NCBI RefSeq assembly: GCF_016907925.1
Contig: NZ_JAFBCZ010000029.1
Span: 1 to 64,000, forward strand
Length of the DNA: 64,000 nt
Source of the DNA: Herpetosiphon giganteus
GTDB lineage: Bacteria > Chloroflexota > Chloroflexia > Chloroflexales > Herpetosiphonaceae
Direction: 5' to 3'
Positions 38,198 to 59,875 of the stretch are shown one piece after another. The translations under genes and the position numbers were made by a program. Position 1 is the stretch's first letter. The number at the start of each line of letters is the position of its first letter. Under the pieces are notes generated by a model. That model was not told the origin of the DNA, ran no database searches, and saw only the letters and a program-made list of their open reading frames with translations.

Positions 38198-38522
38198 GGT
38201 AACCTCAATCTCTGCTCAATCAATGAGTTGCAAGCCACGTTTTGAGTTGCTTGATGCACTATAGCATACAGCACTCTTGTTCAATAGCTCATTAAACTGG
38301 CAACGAGTGCTTGTGCAACGTATCTTTACCAGAACCTCGCTTGCTCTATTGCAAAATCTCAATATATGGTATTGTTAGGCATTATCACGACAATTGTTCA
38401 ATAATGGCTTTGCTGGCCAAATTGATGCGCAAGCTTGCTACGTTTTTGCTCAAACGCCCTCTTTCCTAGCAAGTAGCTACTCAAGCGTCGTATCGTGTTG
38501 AAATTGAAGGAGTGTCGAAGCG
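38198..38522. other. intergenic region between divergent genes
   Basis: About 325 AT-rich bases between the divergent hypothetical gene and the sigma-factor gene. No ORF, repeat or clear sigma-70 promoter is visible. AAGGAG near 38509 is the ribosome binding site of the next gene. Confidence 0.5.
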
Positions 38523-39239
38523 ATGCCTAGCAATCTTGCAGCGCAAATAGCAGAAATCTGGCAGCAGCTTGTCAACCATTTTCACTGGCAATACACCCCT
38601 CACGCTAGCGCCATCATCGATCAAACGCATACATGGTGCATAACCGAATCGATTAATGATCCAACAATCATCAGGCGGCGACTAATCGCGCACTACAACG
38701 AAATGCTCTACGCTGGAATGCAAGATCAGGCGGAGGATGCAGCCCGCGATCTGCAACGAGCGTGCATGCAAGCCGGACGGCGCTCACACTATTCAGCTGA
38801 CGAATTAGAAGAGTTTGCCGCCGATGCGGTGATGATTGTGATTCGCAAACTGGGCGAGATTCAGCCGCAACGCATTTTGGCCTATGCGTTTGCCTGTATG
38901 CGCAATGCCCCAAAGGCCTTAGCCAATGAGCCAAAGATGGTGAGTCTTAATGATGATTATGATCGCAACAATGGCTATCGTGATCAGTCGATCCAGCAGG
39001 TTGAGCAAGCAATAACCGAAACTGACTTGCAGCAGGTGCTCAAAGCAAGCTTGCCCAATCCGCTCGAGTTTGAAATTATCTATCGCAGTTACTTTTCCGC
39101 TGAGACACCGCGCGCGATTGCCGCCGCATTGGCGCTGAAACCAGAACAAGTGCGGTTGCTAAAAAGTCGGGCACTCAAAAAATTGCGCGAGCATCCCCAC
39201 GTTAGACAGCTGTTTGAGCAACTCTTGGTGGAATCATAG
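38523..39239 (+). CDS. ECF-like RNA polymerase sigma factor
   Basis: A 238-residue sigma-70-family protein. The sigma2-like part is at about residues 60-135 (YSADELEEFAADAVMIVIRKL), and sigma4 is near the C-terminus (IIYRSYFSAETPRAIAAALALKPEQVRLLKSRALKKL), a helix-turn-helix for -35 binding. It has about 60 extra N-terminal residues compared with simple ECF factors. AAGGAG lies 10 bases upstream. The next gene encodes a protein with an anti-sigma zinc motif, so the two form a sigma/anti-sigma pair. Confidence 0.8.
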   Translation: MPSNLAAQIAEIWQQLVNHFHWQYTPHASAIIDQTHTWCITESINDPTIIRRRLIAHYNEMLYAGMQDQAEDAARDLQRACMQAGRRSHYSADELEEFAADAVMIVIRKLGEIQPQRILAYAFACMRNAPKALANEPKMVSLNDDYDRNNGYRDQSIQQVEQAITETDLQQVLKASLPNPLEFEIIYRSYFSAETPRAIAAALALKPEQVRLLKSRALKKLREHPHVRQLFEQLLVES

Positions 39240-39297
39240 CGCTTGCTGGCTTGCTCGATCGTGTATGATAATCCTGTCTATACCCAATGAGGTTAGT

Positions 39298-39972
39298 ATG
39301 AGCTACCAAGATTCTCAGAACCCAAATGCGCGTAAGCAGCAGTTGTATAATCGCTTAACTGCTAAGCCTGAACCATGCGCCAACTATCATGACCTGCTGC
39401 TTCAAGCAGCCCAGTTAGAGGCTGATGAGGTTGATATTGATACCGATCTTCGGTTTAGCGAATTGTTTGAACACCTTGATCTCTGCCTCGATTGCGCCGA
39501 GGAATATGCTGAGGTTGTGGCAATGCTGCGTGTATATGCCAACCAGCCGCAGCCGGTTGAATTGCAAAAGCAGCGCCCATTTTTCCCCAAGCCAGCCCCA
39601 ACCGCCGAGCGCAAAGATTCGAAAAAATGGCTGAAACTGTGGCAAGCAGCCAAACGCCAGCTTGAGCTAAACCTGCCCACAATCAGCCTTCAGCCGATGC
39701 TGCCAACAATGACGACAACAGCGCTGTACAATAGCCAATTAACTGAATTTACTGGCAAACCATTTTTCGTTGTGGCGCTGATCGATACCCAAAACCCGCC
39801 AGTGCTCAAGGTGACCTTACGCGAACCACAACCCAAACAATGGCAGGTCACTGTGCAAACCACCAAACAGCGCTATAGTCAAACCACAAATGCGCAAGGC
39901 AACGCTGAGTTTACAACGATTCCTGCAGCAGAATTAATTCAAGGTATTGTATTAACCTGCACTGAACTCTAA
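39298..39972 (+). CDS. zinc anti-sigma factor-like protein (ZAS motif)
   Basis: A 224-residue protein with an H59-x3-C63-x2-C66 motif (HLDLCLDC), the zinc-binding signature of ZAS anti-sigma factors. It has no obvious membrane helix, so it would be a soluble anti-sigma. The C-terminal 90 residues form a beta-sandwich-like domain (FFVVALIDTQ, VTLREPQ, TTNAQGNAEFTTIP) similar in style to the end of the second anti-sigma protein at 44361. The start at 39298 uses GAGG; the upstream in-frame start at 39214 lies inside the sigma gene. It probably holds the sigma factor inactive until a signal releases it. Confidence 0.75.
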   Translation: MSYQDSQNPNARKQQLYNRLTAKPEPCANYHDLLLQAAQLEADEVDIDTDLRFSELFEHLDLCLDCAEEYAEVVAMLRVYANQPQPVELQKQRPFFPKPAPTAERKDSKKWLKLWQAAKRQLELNLPTISLQPMLPTMTTTALYNSQLTEFTGKPFFVVALIDTQNPPVLKVTLREPQPKQWQVTVQTTKQRYSQTTNAQGNAEFTTIPAAELIQGIVLTCTEL

Positions 39973-39975
39973 ACC

Positions 39976-40007
39976 AGTAGCCATGCTTTACTCCAAGCAT
40001 GGCTACT
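39976..40007. terminator. hairpin between convergent genes
   Basis: AGTAGCCATGCTT (39976-39988) pairs with AAGCATGGCTACT (39995-40007) over a 6-base loop. It fills the 30-base gap between the anti-sigma gene and the convergent CHAT gene and overlaps the latter's stop codon. No clear T-run follows on either strand. Confidence 0.6.
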
Positions 40008-41901
40008 CGTCTTCCATCGTGCTCAAAACCATAAATAAACTTAGCAGTGACATCAGTATCGCCAAGGATGGAACTGCCAGCATCCACTGCAGATGCTTGA
40101 GTGCATAATTAAACAAGACCGGAACGAGCACCAGAAACACGAGCGTCATACACAGAATAATGATGTGGTTGAGCGTTTGAGTTTGCGGCGAATCATAGGT
40201 GCCTAAAGCCCATTGATTGCGGGTAAAGCGACGCATAAAAATAGCGCATCCAAGACTATTGCAGCTTATAAGCAACAGCAGCAGCAGATAGTTATAGGGC
40301 TTTACTCCGATTGATTGGCCAAACATAATAAAGCTGAAACTGTAGGCTGCAACCAGCAGAATATAACTCAACCCGTAGCCAAAATAAGCGCCCAAAAATT
40401 TGGTTATGCGTAAAAATCGGCTGGTTGCAGGTTCCATATAGCTCGGCTGAAAATAGGGCCGATAAAAAATCGCTAAAATTGTAGGAATAATCAACCCAAG
40501 CCAACTGAGCGTGTTGATCGTGGTTGATGCACTCTCTGCAATCTGCACTAAACTTGCATTTGGATAGTAGAACGGAATCACGATCGCGATACTTAATCCA
40601 AGCACCGCTACGCCAATCCAGCTGGTTTGAAACCAATGCAGCACCTGCGGTCGCTCTATCAGGCGTTGGCTGCGATCACCCAAGCGCATATAGTTGGTGT
40701 AGGCATCATTTAGAATCGCACCCCGATAAATGACCGGCAAGCTCCAATCGACCACAGCTGCAGGAATATGCGCTGTAATGGCTAAACGAGCTTGGGTTAC
40801 TGCAAATTCGAGCGGCACACCACGATCAAGTTGGCGATACAACACTTGGCTAAAAATAACCGCAGCATCTTGGCGAATTTCCCCTTGAAACGCCACCACA
40901 AACGGGATCCCTCGCCGAATCAAGCCTAATGCCACACCTTCAACCACGCCACGTTGCTGCTCTAAGCTAGCATCATCGGTTGCTGAAGCAGCTTGGGTTG
41001 CTGCATAACAGGCATGCAACACCACCAAGCGTAGCTCAGCGCTATTGCTGAGAATCGGAGCCAAATCGGCAGCCCCTACGCGCCGCACAAAGCCTGCTTG
41101 ATGGGTCAATAATAAATCATAGCGCGTCAACCCTGCTTCGATTTCAACTGGCCCACCATGCGCCACAAGATGCACCACCCGCGGCTGATGGGCGTGCATG
41201 CGTTGCAGTAACTCTTCGAGGCTGCCGGCTTCGTCAAAATAATGCTCAGGTTCAAACAGCGCGCGAATTGCAGCGCGATTAATAATGTTAGGAGCACCAA
41301 TTGGATGGGCAAGCAGCGCCTCAACTGGAAAAGGTTGCGCAATTGTGCTATCTGTTTGCACGCCAACCCCCTGAACCTGGCGGACTATGCTAATGTGTGG
41401 GTTCTGCAACAAAAAATCGCGCTCAACGAATTGATCAATCTGGTTGAGCGTTGCACTCGCAGCATCCTCCAAATCCAAGGCTGTGGTGATTAATTCCCAC
41501 GGCACGGCGAGCAGTTCTAGAACATCGGGATAAAAATTCAAGACAATCCGCAGCTGATGCTTGACCCGATGGGTGCGATTAATGGCTTGGGCCAAACTGC
41601 GTCGCGTTGCCGCTGGTAATAAACTGGCAACCCGATTGCCAAACGTATAGAGGTCGTGCTTACTAGGGGTGTTTAGTGGGACTGCTGAATCGATTTGCAA
41701 ACTATGGGCAAGTTCTAGGTATTCGCTATATTCTTGTTGAATCGCATGCAGTTGATCGGCCCGAAAGGCCTTTTGCGATGTTACCTGGAATAAGCCGCCA
41801 ACAACCGGAATCCATGAGTGTTTGGTAATGACGTTATAGGGCAACGGACTGGTTGGATCGCTCAGTCGCTTGAAGGTTAGGGTGAATTCTTCAATCTGCA
41901 T
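40003..41901 (-). CDS. CHAT-domain protein with C-terminal membrane helices
   Basis: A 632-residue protein. Residues about 150-400 are a CHAT (caspase-like) domain: the catalytic pair is H248 in HLVAHGG and C298 in LHACYA, both intact. About five hydrophobic segments follow (about 430-625), so the protease-like domain would be anchored to the inner membrane and probably face the cytoplasm. The N-terminal 140 residues are a helical platform. AAGGA lies 6 bases upstream. The start is 3 bases after the stop of the upstream membrane-protein gene, giving one operon. CHAT proteins cleave partner proteins in bacterial immunity and cell-death pathways. The target here is unknown. Confidence 0.85.
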   Translation of the reverse strand: MQIEEFTLTFKRLSDPTSPLPYNVITKHSWIPVVGGLFQVTSQKAFRADQLHAIQQEYSEYLELAHSLQIDSAVPLNTPSKHDLYTFGNRVASLLPAATRRSLAQAINRTHRVKHQLRIVLNFYPDVLELLAVPWELITTALDLEDAASATLNQIDQFVERDFLLQNPHISIVRQVQGVGVQTDSTIAQPFPVEALLAHPIGAPNIINRAAIRALFEPEHYFDEAGSLEELLQRMHAHQPRVVHLVAHGGPVEIEAGLTRYDLLLTHQAGFVRRVGAADLAPILSNSAELRLVVLHACYAATQAASATDDASLEQQRGVVEGVALGLIRRGIPFVVAFQGEIRQDAAVIFSQVLYRQLDRGVPLEFAVTQARLAITAHIPAAVVDWSLPVIYRGAILNDAYTNYMRLGDRSQRLIERPQVLHWFQTSWIGVAVLGLSIAIVIPFYYPNASLVQIAESASTTINTLSWLGLIIPTILAIFYRPYFQPSYMEPATSRFLRITKFLGAYFGYGLSYILLVAAYSFSFIMFGQSIGVKPYNYLLLLLLISCNSLGCAIFMRRFTRNQWALGTYDSPQTQTLNHIIILCMTLVFLVLVPVLFNYALKHLQWMLAVPSLAILMSLLSLFMVLSTMEDE

Positions 41902-41904
41902 CGA

Positions 41905-43287
41905 TTATCCTTGCTGCTTGGCTTGCTTCTGGAGAAAATTCAGCTGTTCGATGGTTGATAGCAGGGCATGGCGTGGCCAGCCACGCAACAACGCCCCAGT
42001 TGGCGGGAGCAGATGGGGCTGGTCGGGGGCACGTTGCGCGTTCGCTTGCAACTCGCTGATCGCCTGTTCAAGCAAGCTCTGCGCTTCAGCAGGATAGCGC
42101 TGAAGTGCAGCATAGGCTGGTTGCGCTTCGCTACAAGTAAGAATTGTGGCAATCAGTTCCAGACAAGCGCTGAGCTGGCGGAATGCAGGGTTGGTGGCAT
42201 AGGCTTTTAGGGCTGGCTGCATTTTGGCAATCAGCAGTGGCCATGCTTGTGGTTCTGCAATCTGGCTACAGGCGGTCATGTGGTTGATTAATGGGTGTAA
42301 ACTGCGTGCCCGCCGATTAAGTTGGTGGAGCAGCAGAATCCCGTGTTGGTCGGAGCTAAGTTGCCAAAATACACTGGCACTGGAGCGTTGATCGTGCAAG
42401 AGTTGCTGAATGGTGCGGCGGACAGCCGGACGTTGTGCGCTTAGACGATAAACTGCGATTAATGCCTTAAACCCGCGAGCTGGATCAAGCTGATAGAGTT
42501 GGCGTAAGCTCCAACTTAAACCAATCAAGGGCAATAGGGCTAATTCATCGTAGAGCGCTGGATGATAGCGCCACCAACGCCAAGGCTGGCCTGAAAACCG
42601 TACCAAACAGCCAATCCCGATGCTGACGAGCGACTGCCAGAGCCAACTTATAGGCCGCACGATGCCAATCCATAAACCAAGCGCAAAAAAAGCCAAGCTA
42701 AACCACAATGTACCGATCATTGGAATTAAGCCAAACTGCATCCACAGCAACATCAAACCAAGCCAAATCCGCGTCGTTAACATTGTGGGTAAGGCAATAT
42801 GGGTTGTCACAAATAATGATCCCAGTGCACAGCCAGTTACGATCAAAAACAGCATCAACAAGCGGGGATCATTGGTCTGCAAAAATTGCAACATCACGGT
42901 CGAGAGGCCAAAAAATGCAGGAACCCATGCAAGCTGCATGCGCAGCGGCCAAAAAGCATAATACGAACGCTGCAAAAAAACTGGCTCGCTCAAATAAAGC
43001 CCATCGGCAACCCGATAACGAAATGCATTGCTGGTTCCCATGACGATTGCCAAGGCACAAATTACAACCAAGAAAAGTTGGGGCAAAAGCAGGCTGATGC
43101 CGAAAAGAAGCGGCGGAGTGTCAAGCATCAGCAGTAATCCAACGCCAATCGTTACCAACCAAAAGCCAAGCCACAACGCCAGTGCTAAGCCGAGTTGACG
43201 ATAGCGATAGCGCTGGCGATGGAGATTCAGCAACAGCTGGGTTGGATGCAGCAATGCATCACGAATAATCGCAAACAAATCAAGCAT
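41905..43287 (-). CDS. polytopic membrane protein, partner of CHAT protein
   Basis: A 460-residue protein with about eight hydrophobic segments in the N-terminal half (from LALALWLGFWLVTIGVGLLL to VSIGIGCLV). They are followed by a long soluble helical C-terminal region with repeating hydrophobic/Ala/Leu/Gln patterns, possibly HEAT- or TPR-like. GAGGA lies 7 bases upstream. The stop is 3 bases before the CHAT gene start, so the pair is tightly coupled. I do not recognise the family. By position it may be a scaffold, channel or receptor for the CHAT protein. Confidence 0.75.
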   Translation of the reverse strand: MLDLFAIIRDALLHPTQLLLNLHRQRYRYRQLGLALALWLGFWLVTIGVGLLLMLDTPPLLFGISLLLPQLFLVVICALAIVMGTSNAFRYRVADGLYLSEPVFLQRSYYAFWPLRMQLAWVPAFFGLSTVMLQFLQTNDPRLLMLFLIVTGCALGSLFVTTHIALPTMLTTRIWLGLMLLWMQFGLIPMIGTLWFSLAFFALGLWIGIVRPISWLWQSLVSIGIGCLVRFSGQPWRWWRYHPALYDELALLPLIGLSWSLRQLYQLDPARGFKALIAVYRLSAQRPAVRRTIQQLLHDQRSSASVFWQLSSDQHGILLLHQLNRRARSLHPLINHMTACSQIAEPQAWPLLIAKMQPALKAYATNPAFRQLSACLELIATILTCSEAQPAYAALQRYPAEAQSLLEQAISELQANAQRAPDQPHLLPPTGALLRGWPRHALLSTIEQLNFLQKQAKQQG

Positions 43288-43480
43288 CAGGCTATCCTCG
43301 ATTCAATCAATCCTAACTATGTTTGCATGGCAGTAGTTTTGGTTTATCGGCTATTCTGGCGTATTATACCCAACAATTGCTGCGAGCGATTTGGCAACGA
43401 TTGGATTGTATTCAGCCTTGCGATAACAGCTATACTAGCGATGAATTAAACCACATCTGCATGTTGACAAGGGATAACCC

Positions 43481-44281
43481 ATGATTGTAAACCAAACCGA
43501 TGATCTATCCCAATATCGGGTTCTTTTGGCTACACTGAATCGGGAGCACCATTGGCAATTAACCCAAACCGAACAAGATCGCTATCTGCAACAATTAAAG
43601 CCGTGCTTGCTTGCTACCGAAGGTGAACAGCGCTTAAACTCAATGCTCGCCAACTATCATTATGATCACGGGATCGTGGCCAAATTCCAGACTGGCCATG
43701 GCTTTGATCAGCAGGATTGGAAGGAATGGCTGCAAACGGTTCGCACTGTATTAGCGAAGAATGGCCTCGATTGGAGTCGCCAAATTGCCACTAGCCACGA
43801 AGATTTGGTGCAAATTGCGCTCAATGGCTTGCTCGAAGCCTTGCCAAGCTATTGCTATCGTAGTCGCTTTAAAACGTGGGCTTATAAGGTGTTTTTGCGG
43901 AGTGTGCTCCAACATTTACGCCTCTTTCAGGCAAGTAAACGGACAGCTGAAATCCTTTCGCTCGATCAAAGCATCAATGATCAGTCCAGCCTTGAAGTTG
44001 CCGATAGCCACACCCCTGATCCTGCCGAGCAGACGCTGGCGAATACGCTGCAAAGCTTAATTTATCGGGTTTTGCAGCAACATAGCGATCAACGGCTGCC
44101 AGAAATTTTTCGCTTGGCCAAGGAAGTTGATCTGACGGTTACCGAAATTGGGCAGCGATTTCAATTAAGCCCTGGGCGCATCTCCGATCTGCTCAAACAA
44201 GCTCGGCACTTGCTCCAGCAGCATCCAACGATCCGCGATTGGTATAATCCAGATTCAGCACCTGATGAAGCATTCAATTAA
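43481..44281 (+). CDS. ECF-like RNA polymerase sigma factor
   Basis: A 266-residue sigma-70-family protein. The sigma2 part lies around residues 105-165 (DLVQIALNGLLEALPSY, FKTWAYKVFLRSVLQHLR), and sigma4 near the C-terminus (LTVTEIGQRFQLSPGRISDLLKQARHLLQ). As in the gene at 38523 it has an unusual N-terminal extension of about 100 residues that may be regulatory. AGGG lies close upstream. It is the first gene of a forward cassette with an anti-sigma-like protein and a TPR-CHAT protein. Confidence 0.82.
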   Translation: MIVNQTDDLSQYRVLLATLNREHHWQLTQTEQDRYLQQLKPCLLATEGEQRLNSMLANYHYDHGIVAKFQTGHGFDQQDWKEWLQTVRTVLAKNGLDWSRQIATSHEDLVQIALNGLLEALPSYCYRSRFKTWAYKVFLRSVLQHLRLFQASKRTAEILSLDQSINDQSSLEVADSHTPDPAEQTLANTLQSLIYRVLQQHSDQRLPEIFRLAKEVDLTVTEIGQRFQLSPGRISDLLKQARHLLQQHPTIRDWYNPDSAPDEAFN

Positions 44282-44360
44282 ACGGGGCGCGATCAAACGA
44301 TGTTGGGCTTTTTGCTGCCGATAGACAAACCAGCGTGTATCGATTGATAGGAATTATGGC

Positions 44361-45179
44361 ATGATCAATTCATCAATTCATCAAGAGCTTCAACTATGGC
44401 TTGAACACATAATTCAGGAGCAGGCCATTCACCAGCCGCACGCACAGTTGTATCAGCATATCGCTACATGCGATCACTGTCGCGGAATGACGATTTTAGT
44501 AACCCAAACGTATCCACAGCTTTTTCCTAGCCCTGTGGCTTGGAGCTGTGATGATGCATGCGATGAGCTGGAACTCTTTATTGAGACAGAACGCGTTGAT
44601 GCCCATCAAGCGGTTCATGAGTTTCCTGCTGTGTGGTGGCATATACTTAGCTGCGAGGAATGTGCCGCGCTGTATACAAGTTTACGGATTGTGGATCATG
44701 CTGAATCGCTGGGAGCGATAGCTACGCCACCGCTATTTAGCGCCAACCAACCAAGCATGCCCGCAATGCTTGCTGGTCAATTGCTGCAAGCAACGTCGCC
44801 AACCTATAGCATTACATTCGAGCGCGAATTTCTCAATCGTGCGCTCCAGATTAGCCAGCAACCGACGGTGCGGCGCTATCGATCCGAGCATGCTGAAACG
44901 GTCAAAATTTTAGAAGATAACCCGCAACTCCAAATTGACGATGTGCAGTATCACTTCACCGTTTTGCTCAAAATAGGCCGGAATGGGTGGAGTTTGGTTG
45001 CAACCTTAGAGCCACAATTCGCTGGTTGGCTAACTGTTCAGCTTGGTCAGCAACAGTATCGCCAGCAATTTGATCAGACTGGGAGCGCGAGCCTGAACAA
45101 TCTTGCGCCCGATCATTTATTGCTCATCGATGGGCCAGATTTAAGCATAACGCTTGATCCAGCGCTATTAAATGCCTGA
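44361..45179 (+). CDS. anti-sigma factor-like protein with two zinc motifs
   Basis: A 272-residue protein carrying two ZAS-type H-x3-C-x2-C motifs: H33/C37/C40 (HIATCDHC) and H94/C98/C101 (HILSCEEC). Two such motifs in one short protein are unusual and suggest a duplicated anti-sigma domain. The C-terminal 100 residues form a beta-sandwich-like domain (WSLVATLEPQF, LTVQLGQQQY, DQTGSASL). There is no membrane segment. It lies between the sigma gene and the TPR-CHAT gene, 79 and 23 bases from them, so it would be the inhibitor in the cassette and a natural candidate substrate for the protease-like protein. Confidence 0.78.
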   Translation: MINSSIHQELQLWLEHIIQEQAIHQPHAQLYQHIATCDHCRGMTILVTQTYPQLFPSPVAWSCDDACDELELFIETERVDAHQAVHEFPAVWWHILSCEECAALYTSLRIVDHAESLGAIATPPLFSANQPSMPAMLAGQLLQATSPTYSITFEREFLNRALQISQQPTVRRYRSEHAETVKILEDNPQLQIDDVQYHFTVLLKIGRNGWSLVATLEPQFAGWLTVQLGQQQYRQQFDQTGSASLNNLAPDHLLLIDGPDLSITLDPALLNA

Positions 45180-45202
45180 TCGTCAGGATAGAAGGATGCT
45201 GC

Positions 45203-48043
45203 ATGTTTATCCCAAGTTCTGTTCCGTCGGCCTATCGGAGCTGTTTACAGCTTGCAGATACCAACCCTCGGCAATCGGTGCTGCACGCCAAGCATGGGCT
45301 ACTGCAAACAAGCAGCAATGAACCTCTGGCGCAAGCTTGGGCGTTCTATAGCGTGGGCTGGACACTCTTTCGCTGGGAACGCTTAAGTGAGGCCGCCACG
45401 TATTTTGAACAAGCGCTTGACTACTTTCGCTCCATAGAGGATGCTGCTGGGCTGCTCCATTGCCGAGTTGGCCAGGTTTTTATTGGCTGGATGAGCGGCG
45501 CAGGTCGTAGTTTACAGCAAGAATGGCAGAGTTTGGTTGCTGCCTATCAGCTGCTGGGCGATGAGCAGGCGGTTGCTCAATTGCAAATCTATCAAGCTGC
45601 GCATTTGAATATGCTTGGCGATACAGCCCACAGCATCGCTCAATTAACCACGTTGGCCAGTAATACTTTACATAATATATCGCCGAGTAACCTCGCTCGA
45701 CTCCAGCGAATCTTGGGAGCAGCCTACCTCAATCAAGCCGATTTCCCAACTGCTGAGCGCTACTATCGGGACGCGTTGCAAACCTTTCGCCGCTTAAACT
45801 GGCAACCTGAGATTGCCAAATGCCTATTTGAACAAGCGCGCTTGGCTGAACAAAGGGGCAAATATCGACTGGCAATCTCGCTGCTCCAAAAAGCGCGTGA
45901 TCTTGCTGCCCAGCATGAATTAGTGCTGCTCAAATCCCAATGTGAGAAAGGCTTGGGCCTTATCTATAGTCGATTGGGCTATTATCAACAAGCGATCGAA
46001 CTTTTGGTGACTGCCCGAAGTTTATTTATTGCCAACCAACGCCTCGATCAAGCAGCCCAATGTGATCATAACCTTGGGATTATTTTCTATTATTATGGCC
46101 TTTTTGATTTTAGCCAAGCATTCTATCGTCGAGCACAAAACAGCTATCAAGCGCTGGATAAAACCCATGATCTGTTGATCGTCCAACGCAATCAAGCATT
46201 AATTGTACGTCGTCAAGGCCAGCCTGAAGCAGCGCTCCAGCTCCTGCAACATTTAGCTGAAGCTGCCCAGCAGACCAATGATCTTGGCGAGTTGGCGGCA
46301 ATTTTTCAGGCGCAAGCCCAATGTTGGAATGATCAAGGGCGACATGAGCAAGCACTGGACGCGATCCAACAAGCCTACGCCTATTTCACCGCAATCCAGC
46401 ATGCTGACGCAATGGGCGAATGTTTGCTGGAGTATGCAACAACTGCGCTATTATTAAATAAGTATGGCCAAGCCCGCGACTATTTTCAACGAGCCAAGCG
46501 CTTGCTAAACAAACGCCCGATGTATATGTGGTTAGCGGTGTATGGTCTTGGGCGTTGTGCTCACGCGCAAGGGCAGCTTAAAAAAGCGCGTATGTACTAC
46601 CAAAAAGCGCAGGCGATTGTGCTTAATATGCGGCGCTCAGTGCCAAGCGAGCATGCCTCAAGTGGCTTCTTTAGCCAAGCTCAAGCGCTCTATGGCGATA
46701 GTCTGAGCGTTACAATGACCCTTGGCGATGCAGCCGCCATCTTAGAAGTTGTTGAACAACATCGGGCCGTAACCTTGCAGCACTATCTCAACCAACCAGC
46801 GGCGCATATGCCATTAACCCTGCGCCAGCTGTATCAGCAACGCCGTGAGACCTTACAACACCTCATCAATGCCGCTGCTCCTGAGCATAATATTAACGAG
46901 GCACTCCAAGAATACCTCTTGCTGAGCCTTGAATTACGCCATATTGGCTTCGTGCCAGCAACGCCAATTGCGGATCGGTTTGAGCTTGATCGCATTCGGC
47001 AGCAGTTTGATCTTGCCTATGGCACGGGGTGGATCTGCTTGATTTATAGTTTTTATGGCGAGCACTTATTGATATTCAGCTTAACCACGACCAGTTTGGC
47101 CATGACTCAACAGCGAATCACGCCCCAAGCACGTCATCTTTTAAACCAACTGACCAAACCAGAATATCGCGAATTTACCTACGATGATTATGCTTATGCG
47201 CATGGACGCAGCGCCAAACGTTGGTCGATTTTGCACCAAGCCCAAGCCTTGTTATTGCCAAGCGAGATTGGGCAATTAAGCGATCCTGATCATCACCTCT
47301 TGTTGCTTCCCGATGAGTGCCTGCACGATTTGCCATGGGCGGCCTTAGCCTATCGGTCGCAACGCCTATGCCAACATGCTGTGTTACACCAGATTCCTGC
47401 TTTGCAACGCATGCCAAGCATTGAGCGAGCGGGCCGAAGCCCAAACCTTTTATTTATTGGGTGTAGCTTTCGCGACAGTGAAGATCCATTAATCTATGTG
47501 CTTGATGAGCTAGAACAGGTTCAGCAATATTGGCAGCATCCAATCGAAATTTTGTTGGATGAAAGCGCATCACGGCAACGCATCGTGCAACCTACGCCGC
47601 AAACCACGCTGGGCGATTATAGCCATATTCATATTGCAACCCATGGCCAGATGACCTCGCAACAAGGCTTACGCGCCTACATCAAACTCCATGATGGCGC
47701 TATTTTCTATGATGAAATTTTGCAACTGCAAATAGCCGATGCGTTGGTTATTCTGTCGGTTTGTCAGGGCGCTGATGGTGATGTGTTACCGGGCGCTGAG
47801 GTATTAAGCTTAAGTCGGGCTTTTTTAGGGGCTGGTGCGGCGGCGGTTATTTGTCATTTGTGGTGGGTAGACGATGAGTATGCGGTCGCAATGATGGATC
47901 GATTGTATCAACAGCTTCGCTTGGGCTATGCTGCGCCAACTGCGTTAGCCTATGCCCAACGCCAATGGATTGAGCAGCAACGCGATTTAACTACTGAGCA
48001 ATCATCAGCCATCTGGAGTGGCTGGTCGGTTATTGAGCGTTAA
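45203..48043 (+). CDS. TPR-CHAT protein
   Basis: A 946-residue protein. Residues about 1-500 are tetratricopeptide repeats (for example AQAWAFYSVGWTLFRW, AAYLNQADFPTAERYYRDAL). The C-terminal 300 residues form a CHAT caspase-like domain with catalytic H814 (HIATHGQ) and C854 (LSVCQGADG), followed by the family phrase LPGAEVLSLSRAFLGAGA. The catalytic pair is intact. GAAGG lies 7 bases before the ATG. The architecture matches TPR-CHAT proteases, for example those accompanying type III-E CRISPR, where the protease cuts a protein that restrains a sigma factor. Here the upstream genes encode a sigma factor and an anti-sigma-like protein. Cleavage of the latter is inferred. Confidence 0.88.
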   Translation: MFIPSSVPSAYRSCLQLADTNPRQSVLHAKHGLLQTSSNEPLAQAWAFYSVGWTLFRWERLSEAATYFEQALDYFRSIEDAAGLLHCRVGQVFIGWMSGAGRSLQQEWQSLVAAYQLLGDEQAVAQLQIYQAAHLNMLGDTAHSIAQLTTLASNTLHNISPSNLARLQRILGAAYLNQADFPTAERYYRDALQTFRRLNWQPEIAKCLFEQARLAEQRGKYRLAISLLQKARDLAAQHELVLLKSQCEKGLGLIYSRLGYYQQAIELLVTARSLFIANQRLDQAAQCDHNLGIIFYYYGLFDFSQAFYRRAQNSYQALDKTHDLLIVQRNQALIVRRQGQPEAALQLLQHLAEAAQQTNDLGELAAIFQAQAQCWNDQGRHEQALDAIQQAYAYFTAIQHADAMGECLLEYATTALLLNKYGQARDYFQRAKRLLNKRPMYMWLAVYGLGRCAHAQGQLKKARMYYQKAQAIVLNMRRSVPSEHASSGFFSQAQALYGDSLSVTMTLGDAAAILEVVEQHRAVTLQHYLNQPAAHMPLTLRQLYQQRRETLQHLINAAAPEHNINEALQEYLLLSLELRHIGFVPATPIADRFELDRIRQQFDLAYGTGWICLIYSFYGEHLLIFSLTTTSLAMTQQRITPQARHLLNQLTKPEYREFTYDDYAYAHGRSAKRWSILHQAQALLLPSEIGQLSDPDHHLLLLPDECLHDLPWAALAYRSQRLCQHAVLHQIPALQRMPSIERAGRSPNLLFIGCSFRDSEDPLIYVLDELEQVQQYWQHPIEILLDESASRQRIVQPTPQTTLGDYSHIHIATHGQMTSQQGLRAYIKLHDGAIFYDEILQLQIADALVILSVCQGADGDVLPGAEVLSLSRAFLGAGAAAVICHLWWVDDEYAVAMMDRLYQQLRLGYAAPTALAYAQRQWIEQQRDLTTEQSSAIWSGWSVIER

Positions 48044-48112
48044 GCAGGTCTCCGTTAACCAGTGGTGGTACCACGTCCACTGATTAAGCCAACCGTGCCT
48101 GAGCTTTAGATC

Positions 48113-48301
48113 CTAGCCGCCACCATTTCCACCGTTTGCGCCACCAGGATCAGCCATCAATACTGGCTCATCAGTTGTGAAACTTGTTGTTTGGGCAGCA
48201 TCCACGCTTGGTTGGTTGCTTGGCTTGATCGCAACGTGACTAACGATTGCCCCAATGGTCATCAAGCCAATGACCAACCCGTGTACGATCTGGCGTTTCA
48301 T
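48113..48301 (-). CDS. small exported or membrane-anchored glycine-tailed peptide
   Basis: A 62-residue peptide starting MKRQIVHGLVIGL with AAGGAG upstream. It has one N-terminal hydrophobic segment (signal or anchor), a Thr/Ser-rich middle and a Gly/Asn tail (GGANGGNGGG). The gene is convergent with the TPR-CHAT gene. A longer in-frame start at 48346 is unlikely. Short peptides like this are hard to confirm; the good ribosome binding site and signal-like start support it. Confidence 0.55.
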   Translation of the reverse strand: MKRQIVHGLVIGLMTIGAIVSHVAIKPSNQPSVDAAQTTSFTTDEPVLMADPGGANGGNGGG

Positions 48302-48407
48302 CAATGAACTCCTTTCAATCAGCGATCCATTTGCTGGATTCGCCAAGAAAGAAGGAGTTTTGGCTAAAACGTATCAAGGTTGGATCGGTTTATGGTGGTT
48401 AATAAGT

Positions 48408-48452
48408 GAAGCAGGCAGGATTACCACGTGGTGATCCTGCCTGCTTCTTTTT
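48408..48452 (+). terminator. long hairpin followed by T-run
   Basis: GAAGCAGGCAGGAT (48408-48421) pairs with ATCCTGCCTGCTTC (48434-48447), and the inner ACCAC/GTGGT adds 5 more pairs; TTTTT follows on the plus strand. It is a strong intrinsic terminator for forward transcription, but it lies between two divergent genes, upstream of the sigma gene at 48535. It either ends read-through from the TPR-CHAT operon or acts as a leader element. Confidence 0.8.
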
Positions 48453-48534
48453 GGGTGGGCTGCTATGTAAGATTTTTGTTGTTGCTGCGTTTCCTTTTAT
48501 ATAACCTACTCAATGCATCCGAGAAGGAGCGCCT

Positions 48535-49101
48535 ATGGATCTTATTACGCGGGTTCGTGATGTGTTTGGCGTGGCTCATCCGCTGGCAGACCCAGCCAGT
48601 TTTGCGCTGTTCTATCAGCAAACCCATGCCGTGGTTTTTCGCTATGTGTATATGTTGCATGGCTCACCCAAAAGCGATGTCGAAGATTACACCGCTGAGG
48701 CGTTTGCGCGGGCATGGAAGCAGCGCCATCGCTTCAGTGGCAACGATGAAGCAGCGCTTGGCTGGATTATTACGATTGCGCGGCGGATTGTCATTGATCA
48801 ACAACGGCGAGTTTCGAGCGCAGCAACACACCAACTAGACCAAGCAGATCTGCCGTCCACGCCTGAACAACAAGCCCTGTTGCGTGAGCGGCAGCAGTTG
48901 GCGCTCGAATTGCTCAATCATGTTTCATTGAACCAACGCGATCATCTGATTATGCGCTACTTTCTAGGCTGGCGCGTGCAGACAATCGCCCAACACCTTG
49001 GCTGTTCCGAGAGTTCAGTGTCGGTCAGTATCCATCGAGCCTTGAAAATTCTGCAAAACCGCTATCCAACGTTAGCAGAGGAGCTGTTCCATGACGCATA
49101 A
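48535..49101 (+). CDS. ECF RNA polymerase sigma factor
   Basis: A 188-residue ECF sigma factor. The sigma2 region is at about residues 25-90 (FRYVYMLHGSPKSDVEDYTAEAF, then GWIITIARRIVIDQQRR), and sigma4 at about 120-180 (YFLGWRVQTIAQHLGCSESSVSVSIHRALKIL). AAGGAG lies 6 bases upstream. The gene overlaps its anti-sigma partner by 11 bases. A conventional, full-length ECF factor, unlike the two N-terminally extended ones upstream. Confidence 0.92.
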   Translation: MDLITRVRDVFGVAHPLADPASFALFYQQTHAVVFRYVYMLHGSPKSDVEDYTAEAFARAWKQRHRFSGNDEAALGWIITIARRIVIDQQRRVSSAATHQLDQADLPSTPEQQALLRERQQLALELLNHVSLNQRDHLIMRYFLGWRVQTIAQHLGCSESSVSVSIHRALKILQNRYPTLAEELFHDA

Positions 49102-49831
49102 TCAATTAAACGACCAGGTTCAACCAGCAGCCGAGCAAGCGATTAGCGCATTGTTGCGCGACTTTGGCGAGCATCCGAGCAAGGAATTTCATGCCCGCCA
49201 CGCTGATGCACCATGGATGCAAGCCAGCGCGCCGAAACAACGTCGACCCTTTGGCTGGCGCGGTATGCTGATGGCCAGCTTAACGTTGTTACTCGTAACG
49301 CTGTGGTTTGCCGCTCCAAGCGGCTTCGTGGCAGCACTGAACGAGTTCTTCGGCTTGTATCGTGCCCCATCAGATACGGTCGAATCAGCAACTGGGCCGT
49401 TCCTTACGCCACCAACGGTTGCAACGATTGCAGAAGCCGAGGCCCTGGTTGGCTTTGATATTCTGACTCCGGCCCAACTTCCACCTGAGATCCATGGCAC
49501 CCAAATTATGGTCGATGGCGAACACCCAAATATGTTTGCCCACATCAATTATCTTGATGCAGGTGACAATTCGCGCGTCTCGTTGAGTGCCCAATATGGC
49601 CCGCTCTATCTTCAGATTGGTGCGACTGCTGAGGTTGAGGTCGTTCAATTGGGCAATGCCAGTGCTGAATATTTCCAAGGCGGCTTTATTAATAAAGGGA
49701 CAGTTGCTGAGTGGGATTCGAACTATCCCAATAAAACGCTGCGCTGGCAGGTTGGCGATATTTCTTATATGCTTTCTTCAGTGAACCTCTCCAAACAAGA
49801 ATTGATTAATTTTGCGCTAAGTTTGCAATAA
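49091..49831 (+). CDS. membrane anti-sigma factor-like protein (DUF4367-like)
   Basis: A 246-residue protein with a short cytoplasmic N-terminus, one transmembrane helix (GMLMASLTLLLVTLWF, about residues 58-75) and an external C-terminal domain with strands GFDILTPAQLPPEI, YLQIGATAEVEVVQL and WQVGDISYMLSSV, resembling DUF4367. It has no zinc motif in the N-terminus. The start lies inside the sigma gene, giving translational coupling. It probably tethers the sigma factor at the membrane and releases it on an envelope signal. Confidence 0.82.
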   Translation: MTHNQLNDQVQPAAEQAISALLRDFGEHPSKEFHARHADAPWMQASAPKQRRPFGWRGMLMASLTLLLVTLWFAAPSGFVAALNEFFGLYRAPSDTVESATGPFLTPPTVATIAEAEALVGFDILTPAQLPPEIHGTQIMVDGEHPNMFAHINYLDAGDNSRVSLSAQYGPLYLQIGATAEVEVVQLGNASAEYFQGGFINKGTVAEWDSNYPNKTLRWQVGDISYMLSSVNLSKQELINFALSLQ

Positions 49832-51849: not shown

Positions 51850-52920
51850 TTATGGGGTTGCGGTTGGTAACGACGGCGTGCTGGTTGGCGGCGGCGTTGG
51901 TGGCAAGGTATCGGTTGGCGTTGGCGCAACACTGGTCGCTGTTGGGGTTGCAGTCGCTGGCGGCCCTAGAGTGCCAATCGCCGTCAGCGGCGGCAACGAC
52001 GGTTCGGTCGGCGTTGGCGAGCCTGGAATCACAGTTTCGGGAGGGCCTTGGGTTGGAACCGTGGTTGCAATCGGCGGCATGGTTGGCAATCCTTGGGTCG
52101 CGCTTGCTGTCGGCTGCGAGCCAGTTGTTGGCACAGGGCTGCTTGGTGGCACGCGGGTTGGGCCAGTTTCCTTGGTCGGCGCTGGAACGTCAGTTGGCTC
52201 GGTGCTCACTTCGGGCATGGGCGTGGCTGATGGCAGCGCATTGGTCGCTTGCGGTGAAGGTACTGGCTCATTGGTTGGCACTGGAATGGTGGTGGCCAAT
52301 GGCGGTGAGGCCACCGGAATCGTTGGCGGATTGGTTGGCACGCTGGTTGGTTGCACCTGAACGCTGGTTGGCACGACTGGGATTGAACTTGGCAGTGGCT
52401 TGGCGACCATGGTTGGTTGGTTCGATTGGGTTGGCGTGAGCGCTGGTTGGCTGGTTGTTGATGCAATAGGCAAGGTTGTCGCGCTCGGCTGCACGACGCT
52501 CAAGGTTGGCGTGGCTTGCACAACTGCAACAGCGGGCGATGCACTTGCCAGCGGTGTTTGCAGCTGGGCAATCGTTGCAGGCTGCTTGATGGGCATTCGA
52601 TTGAGGGCTTCAATGCCGAACCATGCCAAAAGCAGGGCCATTGCCGCCAGTTGGAGCAAGCGCGCAGAGCGACGTTGCCAAAAGCGGGTTGGCTGGGTTT
52701 GGCCCAGAATCTGGGCGTGAATTGCGGCGACGGTTGCGATTGGCGGGCGGGCATCGCTCTGCACCAGTAGCGCAAACGATTGCTCGGTTTGGGCCTCTAG
52801 CTCGGCCAAGAGCGCATTGCATTGCTGACAGGTTGCGAGGTGCTGCTCAAAAGTGGCGGCATCCGCTGGAGCCACATCCGCAGCCTGAGCCAATATGGTT
52901 TTAATCTCAGCACAATTCAC
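51850..52920 (-). CDS. transmembrane anti-sigma factor with Pro/Thr-rich external domain
   Basis: A 356-residue protein. The cytoplasmic N-terminus has the ZAS motif HLATCQQC, followed near residue 88 by a membrane helix (LLQLAAMALLLAWFGI). The rest, about 240 residues, is nearly all Pro, Thr, Ser, Val and Ala in repeats such as PTPT and TATP, and should be an extended, probably glycosylated external stalk. It overlaps the sigma gene by four bases (ATGA), so it is the dedicated inhibitor. The downstream IPT-repeat gene starts 32 bases later. Confidence 0.88.
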   Translation of the reverse strand: MNCAEIKTILAQAADVAPADAATFEQHLATCQQCNALLAELEAQTEQSFALLVQSDARPPIATVAAIHAQILGQTQPTRFWQRRSARLLQLAAMALLLAWFGIEALNRMPIKQPATIAQLQTPLASASPAVAVVQATPTLSVVQPSATTLPIASTTSQPALTPTQSNQPTMVAKPLPSSIPVVPTSVQVQPTSVPTNPPTIPVASPPLATTIPVPTNEPVPSPQATNALPSATPMPEVSTEPTDVPAPTKETGPTRVPPSSPVPTTGSQPTASATQGLPTMPPIATTVPTQGPPETVIPGSPTPTEPSLPPLTAIGTLGPPATATPTATSVAPTPTDTLPPTPPPTSTPSLPTATP

Positions 52921-53429
52921 AATTCACTCTCCCCGGTATACAAGTCTCGAAAGCGATGGCGGGCACGATGCAGGCGCACCCGCACGGTCGAGACGTTTTC
53001 GCTGAGCAACTCGGCGATTTCGCTGGGGCTAAGGCCAACGCAATGCGCCATCACTAAGAGTTCTGCTTCACGCTGGTTGAGCCGAACCAAGCAATCACGC
53101 ACGTCTTGGGCGGTTGCAATCGCGTGTTCATGCGAAGGTGTGCTGGTCTGAAATGGCAGCCAGCTCCAGCGGCGTTTGCGTCGCAGCATATCAATCACCA
53201 GATTGCCCGCAATGCGGCAGAGCCAAGCATAGGGGTTATTTGGCAAGGCTTGGGTGCGGAGGGCAACAAGCGCCTTGGTAAAGGTTTCTTGCAGCAAATC
53301 AGCCGCTTGTTCCTCATCGCCGATCAAGCGCACAAGATAGCGAAAGATCGCGAGGTTATATTGGTCAAACCACGCGGCCAAGCGTTCTCGCACGGCAGCC
53401 TCGGCCAGAGGCACTGAGTCAACCACCAT
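52917..53429 (-). CDS. ECF RNA polymerase sigma factor
   Basis: A 170-residue ECF sigma factor with sigma2 (FRYLVRLIGDEEQAADLLQETF, then WLCRIAGNLVIDMLRRKRR) and sigma4 (LVMAHCVGLSPSEIAELLSENVSTVRVRLHRAR) regions. The start at 53429 has AAGG 7 bases upstream; an in-frame ATG two codons earlier is an alternative. It overlaps its anti-sigma gene by four bases and heads an operon with the IPT-repeat protein. Confidence 0.92.
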   Translation of the reverse strand: MVVDSVPLAEAAVRERLAAWFDQYNLAIFRYLVRLIGDEEQAADLLQETFTKALVALRTQALPNNPYAWLCRIAGNLVIDMLRRKRRWSWLPFQTSTPSHEHAIATAQDVRDCLVRLNQREAELLVMAHCVGLSPSEIAELLSENVSTVRVRLHRARHRFRDLYTGESEL

Positions 53430-53653
53430 ACACAATCCTTACATCCAGATCAAAAGAATTGCCTTTAAAGACGAATAAGCATGCCCTAGCATTTCAACAA
53501 TGCAAACGAATTTCAAAAATTGCTCAAAATCAGTGGTTTTCGGTGATATTTCGTGCGCGAATGGCACATTTGAGGCGTAAGTAATGTTTGCTGCATAACC
53601 CAAGTATGCTACACTCAATTTGAGTCAATCATTGGAGTAACGAGGGAGCAGCA

Positions 53654-56221: not shown

Positions 56222-57385
56222 TTATTCAAGCAGCAGCCGAATGGCCTCGCCAAAGGGAAAAGCTTCGCTATCCAGGCCGCCAGCAACGACTACCCACAAG
56301 AATGGATATTCAGGGGGTACTGGCGGAAAACTGCCATAGCCATCAGTCAAATATACCGCCACCACTGGCATATATGGACGGATTAAGCCCTCAAGGGCCG
56401 CAAAAAAGGGTCGGAAATCGGTGCCACCACCGCCGATTGGCTCAGGAATTGGGCTGTGGGCGGTGAGTTGAAATGGCCCATGCGCTTCAGCATCAACATA
56501 AAACAAATCGCAGGTGATATGCGGATAGGAACGTAAAATCCCCTGCACCTCATCCATAAAGAGCTGCAAATGGCGCTCGTCGATTGAGCCGCTGGTATCG
56601 ACCGCCACAAAAACGTGCAGACTCTCGCCAGCTAAGGCATCGAGGTAGAGACCGCGACTCAAAAAACGCCGATCAAAGCCGACAAAATCGGTGGGCGTTT
56701 GCACCAAATAGCGCCATAAATAGGTCCGCCAATCGAGTTTCTCAGGGTCGGTGTTGCGCAACTCACGACGCATGCTGCTTGGCAAACTGCCTTGGGCGAC
56801 CATCAGCGCAATCAGATCAGCTTGGTGCCGCGCATTGCGCCAATGAGCTTCTAGCACTGCATTGCGTTTGGTGCCGCGCGTCTCTTGTTCAAAACCGCCT
56901 TGGCCACTCAGACCCGATCGATCAGCCTCGGTTGCTTCGAGTAAATCAAGGCTGTCGGTCAGGGGGTAGCGGCTAGGGTCGCGGACTAATAATTCGTACA
57001 CTTCTTCGACGCTGAATGCTTCAAGCTCAGGGTCGCGCTGGGTCATGGGGTCGCAGCCAATGCCCTCGATCGTGCTGATAATGCCATTCAACACAATATC
57101 GCAGGCCGTGTTCCAAATCCGAGGGTTGCGGCTACCACGGCGGGGAAGATGCAGCAAGGCCGCATGCAACACCTGATGTACAATCAAGCGATCTTGATCC
57201 TGCTGGCGGAGAGTGGCGAAATAATCAGGGTTGACATACACCCGTTCACCATCAGTTGCCGCTTGATTCACATTCGTGGCCGCAACCACGGGCGCAAATA
57301 ACACCAAGCTCGCAAAGTAGGCTGAACGGGTGCGTAGCCGCAGCACCGAAGCACTAATCATGCGCTCAAATTCGGTGGCACTCAT
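56222..57385 (-). CDS. VWA-like / putative metallopeptidase domain protein (DUF2201-like)
   Basis: A 387-residue protein. The N-terminal part matches the putative metallopeptidase domain of DUF2201 proteins (HQVLHAALLH, then RNPRIWNTACDIVLN), but the usual HExxH glutamate is Gln71 (H70-Q-V-L-H74). The C-terminal part is VWA-like with an intact MIDAS motif DTSGS and GGGGTDFRP. Such proteins pair with MoxR-type AAA+ ATPases as chaperone-like complexes. The start overlaps the MoxR gene stop by four bases. Third gene of the operon. Confidence 0.87.
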   Translation of the reverse strand: MSATEFERMISASVLRLRTRSAYFASLVLFAPVVAATNVNQAATDGERVYVNPDYFATLRQQDQDRLIVHQVLHAALLHLPRRGSRNPRIWNTACDIVLNGIISTIEGIGCDPMTQRDPELEAFSVEEVYELLVRDPSRYPLTDSLDLLEATEADRSGLSGQGGFEQETRGTKRNAVLEAHWRNARHQADLIALMVAQGSLPSSMRRELRNTDPEKLDWRTYLWRYLVQTPTDFVGFDRRFLSRGLYLDALAGESLHVFVAVDTSGSIDERHLQLFMDEVQGILRSYPHITCDLFYVDAEAHGPFQLTAHSPIPEPIGGGGTDFRPFFAALEGLIRPYMPVVAVYLTDGYGSFPPVPPEYPFLWVVVAGGLDSEAFPFGEAIRLLLE

Positions 57386-59762: not shown

Positions 59763-59875
59763 AGAAAACTCCCTCAATAAATCGCTCGTTTACCCAACCG
59801 ATCAATCGATAAACTCGGCTGATTGTACCATTTATCTAGATATTGTAATGGATGCTTAAACGTCCAAGTCGCAAC

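What the first reader, a model, noticed from the sequence alone, without database searches (positions are those of the whole stretch)
43481..48043. Sigma factor / double-ZAS anti-sigma / TPR-CHAT protease cassette
The three genes are in line and closely spaced, and the CHAT catalytic pair (H814, C854) is intact. In type III-E CRISPR a TPR-CHAT protease cuts a protein that restrains a sigma factor. Here the same logic could run without CRISPR: the TPR part senses a trigger, the CHAT part cleaves the anti-sigma, and the sigma factor turns on a response. This may be an undescribed signalling or immunity system.
Basis: partly seen in the sequence, partly recalled or inferred. Interest (0 to 1): 0.8.

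Follow-up and report, generated by a model that had tools for sequence, protein, structure and literature searches.

The report
Sigma, anti-sigma and caspase-like protease cassette
A filamentous soil bacterium carries, as one exchangeable gene block, a transcription switch, its zinc-finger brake and a caspase-like protease that probably cuts the brake; the same trio occurs in many species of two bacterial phyla without any CRISPR genes, which suggests a widespread, undescribed way to turn a sensed trigger into gene expression.

Summary
In detail: sigma (43481-44281), soluble double-HxxxCxxC protein (44361-45179) and TPR-CHAT (45203-48043) lie in line, 79 and 23 bp apart; H814/C854 are invariant in 64/64 homologues. 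The trio is conserved. Among 38 more distant TPR-CHAT loci (Chloroflexota and Acidobacteriota) with room upstream, recruited by the protease alone, 28 have both a sigma and an anti-sigma-like gene adjacent; about 3% is expected by chance. Relatives of the middle protein pass Pfam cut-offs for zf-HC2 and for a C-terminal CarboxypepD_reg beta-sandwich. The TPR-CHAT model matches Csx29 and, notably, DdvA, a solved anti-sigma factor that carries TPR-CHAT in the same chain. That cassette sits at a variable site: one congener has 1.4 kb there, another a STAND-like NTPase. [quoted passage not shown] Cleavage, trigger, regulon and any immune role are undemonstrated. New variant of a known kind (Csx29-Csx30-CASP-sigma, CalpL-CalpT-CalpS, DdvS-DdvA).

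The parts
38523..39239 (+). sigma-2: second sigma factor of the cassette (238 aa)
   Evidence: TIGR02937 over cut-off at C29:38745-39191 (52.1 bits); Sigma70_r4 E 1.5e-4, below the Pfam cut-off; relatives next to TPR-CHAT in L024, L028, L029, L041, L043, L044
39214..39972 (+). anti-sigma-2 (252 aa, one HxxxCxxC), overlaps sigma-2 by 26 bp
   Evidence: recruited by the iterated anti-sigma profile; similar to L043/L044 counterparts, E about 1e-20; no Pfam hit
40003..41901 (-). membrane CHAT protein (632 aa): CHAT domain then about 6 TM-like segments
   Evidence: PF12770 59.3 bits; catalytic His and Cys kept in the L024 and L044 homologues; TM-like segments at 423-623
41905..43287 (-). 460-aa membrane protein, partner of the membrane CHAT protein
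   Evidence: about 6 TM-like segments; homologue beside the membrane CHAT gene in L044; no family
43481..44281 (+). sigma-1: sigma-70-type factor (266 aa) with an N-terminal extension of about 80 aa
   Evidence: regions 2 and 4; extension shared by homologues
44361..45179 (+). anti-sigma-1 (272 aa): two HxxxCxxC zinc-type anti-sigma domains, disordered linker, C-terminal beta-sandwich; no TM segment
   Evidence: model; relatives pass zf-HC2 and CarboxypepD_reg
44457..44480 (+). first zinc motif HIATCDHC (residues 33-40)
   Evidence: H33, C37, C40 invariant in 11 homologues
44640..44663 (+). second zinc motif HILSCEEC (residues 94-101)
   Evidence: C98, C101 invariant, H94 nearly so
44859..44897 (+). 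disordered linker residues 167-179 with RRYRS (R171, R172, R174), candidate cleavage region
   Evidence: pLDDT under 50; equivalent Arg 34/34 in the more distant triplets, 9/15 in the near ones; inference
45203..48043 (+). TPR-CHAT protease (946 aa): TPR repeats about 1-480, CHAT about 610-946, catalytic H814 and C854
48408..48447 (+). strong terminator-like hairpin (18-bp stem plus T tract) at the right edge of the cassette
38270..48462 (.). approximate extent of the accessory cassette (left edge 37.7-38.3 kb, right edge about 48462)
   Evidence: flanks collinear at about 88% nt identity with G094 and G034; different content between them

Best explanation
The trio is a CRISPR-independent regulated-proteolysis switch. 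The soluble middle protein holds the sigma factor inactive through its zinc-type anti-sigma domains. The TPR part of TPR-CHAT recognises a trigger (unknown) or a partner that reports it. This arranges the His814/Cys854 site, and the CHAT domain cuts the anti-sigma protein, most likely in the disordered linker between the anti-sigma domains and the C-terminal beta-sandwich, which may dock the protease. The freed sigma factor redirects transcription. In the window this unit is paired with a second sigma/anti-sigma pair and a membrane CHAT protein, and all seven genes form one exchangeable cassette. Shown: gene content, conservation, intact dyad, fold, variable site. Inferred: sigma binding, cleavage, site, trigger, direction of signalling.
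For: Linkage: sigma plus middle gene adjacent to 28/38 distant TPR-CHAT loci recruited by the protease alone and 13/20 close ones, in Chloroflexota and Acidobacteriota; chance about 2.7% per gene. In the own genome 4 of 12 CHAT genes have such a pair adjacent (P about 2e-4). Relatives of the middle protein pass zf-HC2 and CarboxypepD_reg cut-offs. H814/C854 64/64. Model (pLDDT 82.7) best matches Csx29, Z about 27, and separase. DdvA (8rot, 8rw5), titled a transmembrane anti-sigma factor, carries TPR-CHAT in one chain with the dyad aligned; M. xanthus sigma DdvS is active when DdvA is lost (PMC4374960). Csx29 cuts the sigma inhibitor Csx30 (PMC10028731). One linker Arg is invariant in 34 distant middle proteins.
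Against: No cleavage, binding or transcription data. The window protein alone does not pass zf-HC2, and its fold search found no anti-sigma structure (model pLDDT 66). Some triplets have middle proteins of 165-175 aa without a recognisable anti-sigma domain (L059, L123, L126, L128). Seven close loci have no adjacent pair. Pairing specificity within one genome could not be shown from co-divergence. No autoregulatory promoter motif was evident by eye.
Confidence: 0.58

Rival explanations
1. The sigma/anti-sigma pair is the input and the protease the output: a stress frees the sigma factor, which transcribes TPR-CHAT (and in relatives an exported subtilase), an executioner or processing protease acting on other proteins.
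For: In many relatives an exported S8 subtilase follows TPR-CHAT (9 of 10 tested pass PF00082; similarity cluster of 19), so the operon can be read as an effector set under the sigma factor. CHAT proteins with such a subtilase but no detected pair exist (L075, L078, L117).
Against: Does not explain why sigma, anti-sigma and CHAT stay together while the subtilase is absent from the close loci examined, nor why an anti-sigma factor is fused to TPR-CHAT in DdvA.
Confidence: 0.2
2. TPR-CHAT acts mainly as a non-proteolytic sensor or co-anti-sigma, as the sensory part of a split DdvA: it binds the anti-sigma protein and modulates it by conformation.
For: DdvA combines anti-sigma domain and TPR-CHAT in one chain; no cleavage by DdvA was found in the papers held.
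Against: Both catalytic residues are invariant in 64 of 64 homologues from two phyla, which a pure scaffold would not need.
Confidence: 0.15
3. Chance or operon neighbourhood without functional coupling.
For: Sigma factors are numerous (about 31 over the TIGR02937 cut-off in this genome).
Against: Chance adjacency is about 2.7% per CHAT gene against 28/38 seen; order is recurrent in two phyla; the cassette is present or absent as a block.
Confidence: 0.03

Closest known systems
Type III-E CRISPR protease module Csx29-Csx30-CASP-sigma (PMC10028731)
   Same: TPR-CHAT protease of the same fold (Z about 27) beside a sigma-binding inhibitor and an ECF-like sigma factor; same logic proposed
   Different: No Cas7-11 or other cas gene among the genes annotated at 34.4-60 kb; TPR-CHAT far below the Csx29 model cut-off (30.3 against 300 bits); the inhibitor has zinc-type anti-sigma motifs; no Csx30 match
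DdvS/DdvA of Myxococcus xanthus (PMC4374960; PDB 8rot, 8rw5, 8rlz)
   Same: Anti-sigma domain and TPR-CHAT work on one ECF sigma factor; DdvA anti-sigma domain is the second hit of the middle-protein profile and DdvA CHAT keeps the aligned His and Cys
   Different: DdvA is one transmembrane chain; here anti-sigma and TPR-CHAT are separate soluble proteins
CalpL-CalpT-CalpS (type III CRISPR; described in PMC11229360)
   Different: CalpL is a SAVED-Lon protease activated by cyclic oligoadenylate; unrelated protease fold
Metacaspase-sigma-70 operons of Myxococcus and others (PMC3501461) and EACC2-caspase/ECF/DUF1822 neighbourhoods (PMC8195603)
   Same: Caspase-like proteins linked to sigma factors
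   Different: C14 caspase domains rather than TPR-CHAT; no zinc-type anti-sigma plus beta-sandwich protein described in the passages read

Membership tests
CHAT protease (PF12770, clan CD) | CHAT domain over the curated cut-off | tested here: met
   129.2 bits against 24
CHAT protease (PF12770, clan CD) | catalytic His-Cys pair | tested here: met
   H814 and C854 in 64/64
CHAT protease (PF12770, clan CD) | separase/Csx29-like fold | tested here: met
   Csx29 Z 27.2, rmsd 12.1 over 505 residues; separase 5fby Z 21.2, rmsd 3.6 over 308
CHAT protease (PF12770, clan CD) | proteolytic activity | not testable with these tools
   needs an assay
Sigma-70 family (ECF-like) | regions 2 and 4, TIGR02937 cut-off | tested here: met
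   71.7 against 42.9 bits; PF04542 and PF04545 over cut-off
Zinc-binding anti-sigma factor (ZAS) | HxxxCxxC motif conserved | tested here: met
   two copies; Cys invariant in 11 homologues
Zinc-binding anti-sigma factor (ZAS) | PF13490 zf-HC2 over cut-off in the window protein | tested here: not met
   no hit in the window protein; relatives L058 and L067 pass; profile finds RsiW at E 0.028
Zinc-binding anti-sigma factor (ZAS) | binds and inhibits the cognate sigma | not testable with these tools
   no complex prediction available
Type III-E CRISPR Craspase | Cas7-11 effector and other cas genes next to the protease | tested here: not met
   none among the genes annotated at 34.4-60 kb; no CRISPR-like array in 37.6-48.6 kb
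Type III-E CRISPR Craspase | Csx29 family model NF041237 over cut-off | tested here: not met
   30.3 against 300 bits
DdvA-type anti-sigma | anti-sigma domain, TM and TPR-CHAT in one polypeptide | tested here: not met
   separate genes, no TM-like segments; no anti-sigma profile hit on 64 CHAT ORFs
Known anti-phage defence system | match to PADLOC models | tested here: inconclusive
   only generic TPR and weak matches; the library is limited to described systems

The most novel reading that the evidence does not exclude
A widespread CRISPR-free immune or allorecognition signalling system: swappable TPR-CHAT proteases sense invaders and release sigma factors by cutting zinc-type anti-sigma proteins. 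The Herpetosiphon version couples two sigma/anti-sigma pairs to one soluble and one membrane protease at a site that also hosts a STAND-like NTPase in a relative. CRISPR Csx29-Csx30-sigma would then be a captured descendant of this older logic.
Probability: 0.3. Interest if true: 0.87.

Novelty: new variant of a known kind. Interest (0 to 1): 0.64.

Why it matters
Type III-E CRISPR has a protease that cuts a sigma inhibitor, but where that arrangement came from is open to question. A conserved, CRISPR-free sigma/anti-sigma/TPR-CHAT unit in two phyla, plus an anti-sigma factor in which TPR-CHAT is part of the same chain, suggests the logic predates and is broader than CRISPR. It gives concrete, small, testable systems (three soluble proteins, a named catalytic cysteine and a candidate arginine in a linker) for asking how caspase-like proteases were first wired to transcription in bacteria.

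Tried and rejected
Autoregulation: no shared ECF-type -35/-10 was evident by eye in the upstream regions of sigma genes in Herpetosiphon and relatives, and the generic promoter scan is at chance. Co-divergence: overall Mantel r 0.86-0.91 over 43 triplets, but this mixes in species divergence; swapping copies within two genomes did not favour the true pairs (ranks 7, 10 and 2 of 12), so specific pairing is unproven. Fold search with the middle-protein model gave nothing significant, so its anti-sigma identity rests on motifs, relatives and profiles. Cyanobacteria: no strong TPR-CHAT hit in 117 genomes, which by itself shows nothing because no positive control rang. Some CHAT neighbours that looked like possible sigma or anti-sigma genes proved unrelated (ABC transporter, Rieske, XisI). 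Defence context: PADLOC adds nothing firm. A defining paper on DdvA structures and the ECF classification paper are not in the library.
Full report
Observation. The three ORFs are real and exactly placed: sigma 43481-44281, middle protein 44361-45179, TPR-CHAT 45203-48043, all on the + strand, separated by 79 and 23 bp. The first is a sigma-70-family factor (TIGR02937 71.7 bits against 42.9; regions 2 and 4) with an N-terminal extension of about 80 residues that its homologues share. The third has TPR repeats and a CHAT domain. The second has no Pfam family but two HxxxCxxC motifs.

Where it is. The genome (6.16 Mb, 85 contigs) is of the same genus as the assembly whose loci coincide with Herpetosiphon aurantiacus DSM 785 (G102 and CP000875), so the window is from a Herpetosiphon species (Chloroflexota).

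What the middle protein is. In 11 homologues H33, C37, C40, C98 and C101 are invariant. The profile's best solved relatives are the anti-sigma factors RsiW, DdvA and, lower, RskA-type 3hug (E 0.03 to 0.4; weak, but DdvA is the same protein that later appears as a TPR-CHAT hit). Wider homologues found next to other TPR-CHAT genes pass the Pfam cut-offs for zf-HC2 (L058, L067) and for CarboxypepD_reg (L122). The family is therefore an anti-sigma domain of variable kind, a linker and a C-terminal beta-sandwich. The AlphaFold model of the window protein (only pLDDT 66) agrees: two helical domains, a disordered linker, then beta strands. There is no TM-like segment, so the whole switch is predicted to be soluble. 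Some triplets have short middle proteins without a visible anti-sigma domain.

What the protease is. The model (pLDDT 82.7) has TPR helices to about residue 480 and a CHAT region at about 610-946. Its best structural matches are Csx29 of type III-E CRISPR and separases. DdvA (8rot, 8rw5), whose entries are titled a transmembrane anti-sigma factor, is also among the best matches, and by sequence it aligns over the CHAT core with the same His and Cys. In Myxococcus xanthus the sigma factor DdvS becomes active when DdvA is inactivated, by a signal that is unknown (PMC4374960). I take the PDB DdvA to be that protein; the entry's organism was not shown. An anti-sigma factor that carries a TPR-CHAT in its own chain is the strongest single link between the two parts, apart from the CRISPR case.

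Conservation. Searching with the middle protein found relatives in 9 of 251 Chloroflexota genomes. Nearly all that were not cut by a contig end have the sigma gene just upstream and the TPR-CHAT either downstream or divergent. To avoid that bias I searched with the TPR-CHAT alignment alone in Chloroflexota and Acidobacteriota, then inspected neighbours. Of 38 distant loci (score under 600 bits) with at least 2.2 kb upstream, 28 have both a sigma and a middle gene within 2.5 kb, 1 sigma only, 3 middle only and 6 neither. Of 20 close ones, 13 have both and 7 neither. Two of those seven are in genomes where a sigma/anti-sigma pair or middle gene lies elsewhere (G214: L027; G012: L025), and one (L044) has the second module next door. 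With about 33 sigma genes per 6.16 Mb, chance adjacency is about 2.7%. Loci are not independent, so the tiny nominal probability should not be taken literally. In the own genome 4 of 12 CHAT genes have such a pair. One of those pairs, on contig 17, has a counterpart of the same arrangement in H. aurantiacus (L103). The catalytic pair is kept in 64 of 64 CHAT proteins.

Beyond the finding: the cassette. Two genes upstream (38523-39239 and 39214-39972) are a second sigma/anti-sigma pair. They converge on a membrane CHAT protein (40003-41901, catalytic pair kept, about six TM-like segments) and a 460-aa membrane protein (41905-43287). Relatives of this second module lie beside TPR-CHAT in H. aurantiacus (L024) and other genomes (L028, L029, L041, L043, L044).

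The site. The flanks of the window (24.9-37.7 kb and 48.5-56 kb) are collinear with two congeners at about 88% nucleotide identity. Between them the window has about 10.5 kb, G094 has 1.4 kb with one small membrane ORF, and G034 (H. llansteffanensis, matched through L085) has 6.1 kb with a 1112-aa AAA_16/NACHT-like protein and two further genes. The cassette has lower G+C (0.49 against 0.52-0.54) and ends at a strong terminator-like hairpin (48408-48447). The NADH-dehydrogenase-like gene just outside is 88-98% identical across the genus, while the TPR-CHAT finds only 28-32% identical relatives. So the seven genes behave as one exchangeable unit at a variable site that can also hold a STAND-like NTPase. 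This fits an accessory conflict or recognition function but does not prove one. A second locus, in G070, also loses synteny with H. aurantiacus at the edge of its triplet.

Mechanism. Established for Csx29: TPR-CHAT, once activated, cuts Csx30, which binds and inhibits a sigma factor (PMC10028731). The best reading here is the same logic with a zinc-type anti-sigma protein. A specific prediction: in 34 distant middle proteins one linker Arg between the anti-sigma part and the beta-sandwich is invariant, often in the context AxGxRS. Proteases of this clan often cut after basic residues (general knowledge). In the near family, including the window, the Arg is aligned in 9 of 15. The window's linker has RRYRS at 171-175 inside the lowest-confidence stretch. 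This is an inference, and the alignment there is uncertain.

Rivals. In many relatives an exported subtilase follows TPR-CHAT, so sigma may instead drive expression of a set of proteases. Or TPR-CHAT may act without cutting, as a split DdvA sensor. Only the first rival is compatible with an unrelated substrate; an assay with C854A would separate all three.

Known or new. The literature held describes sigma-linked caspase-like proteins (PMC3501461, PMC8195603) and two CRISPR-linked cases, but no paper found there describes this trio (only open-access papers are held). I call it a new variant of a known kind.

Noticed in passing
L143:13420-18992 (H. llansteffanensis, same chromosomal site as the cassette): A 1112-aa AAA_16/NACHT-like protein with a TPR-like tail, a 352-aa protein and a 388-aa protein occupy the site that holds the sigma/CHAT cassette in the window.
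   Followed up: partly
downstream of TPR-CHAT in L056, L057, L059, L066, L075, L078, L117, L121, L126 and others: An exported subtilisin-like (S8) protease gene directly follows TPR-CHAT in many Chloroflexota and Acidobacteriota loci but not in Herpetosiphon.
   Followed up: partly
L026:5555-15027: Two different sigma/anti-sigma/TPR-CHAT triplets lie back to back in one genome of the same family (G061).
   Followed up: no
own genome contigs 17 and 15 (L032, L033): Two further sigma/anti-sigma/CHAT clusters of other types; the contig-17 one has a counterpart in H. aurantiacus (L103).
   Followed up: partly
window 56222-59777: VWA-like DUF2201, MoxR-type AAA and LRV/HEAT-repeat genes in a row; a 94% identical copy of the DUF2201 gene lies on contig 33.
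   Followed up: no
window 48535-49831 and 51850-53435: Two more sigma/membrane partner pairs just right of the cassette: one ECF sigma with a DUF4367 protein, one with a P/T-rich protein with a zf-HC2-like start. The first pair is part of the conserved flank.
   Followed up: no
L028, L030 intergenic regions between divergent CHAT and sigma genes: Long inverted repeats (for example ATAGTAGCATA...TATGCTACTAT in L030) that could be operator sites.
   Followed up: no
L045:3866-4201: A XisI gene lies directly upstream of TPR-CHAT in Oscillochloris fontis, where sigma and anti-sigma are not adjacent.
   Followed up: no
window 21386-33634: A single 4082-aa ORF, not examined.
   Followed up: no
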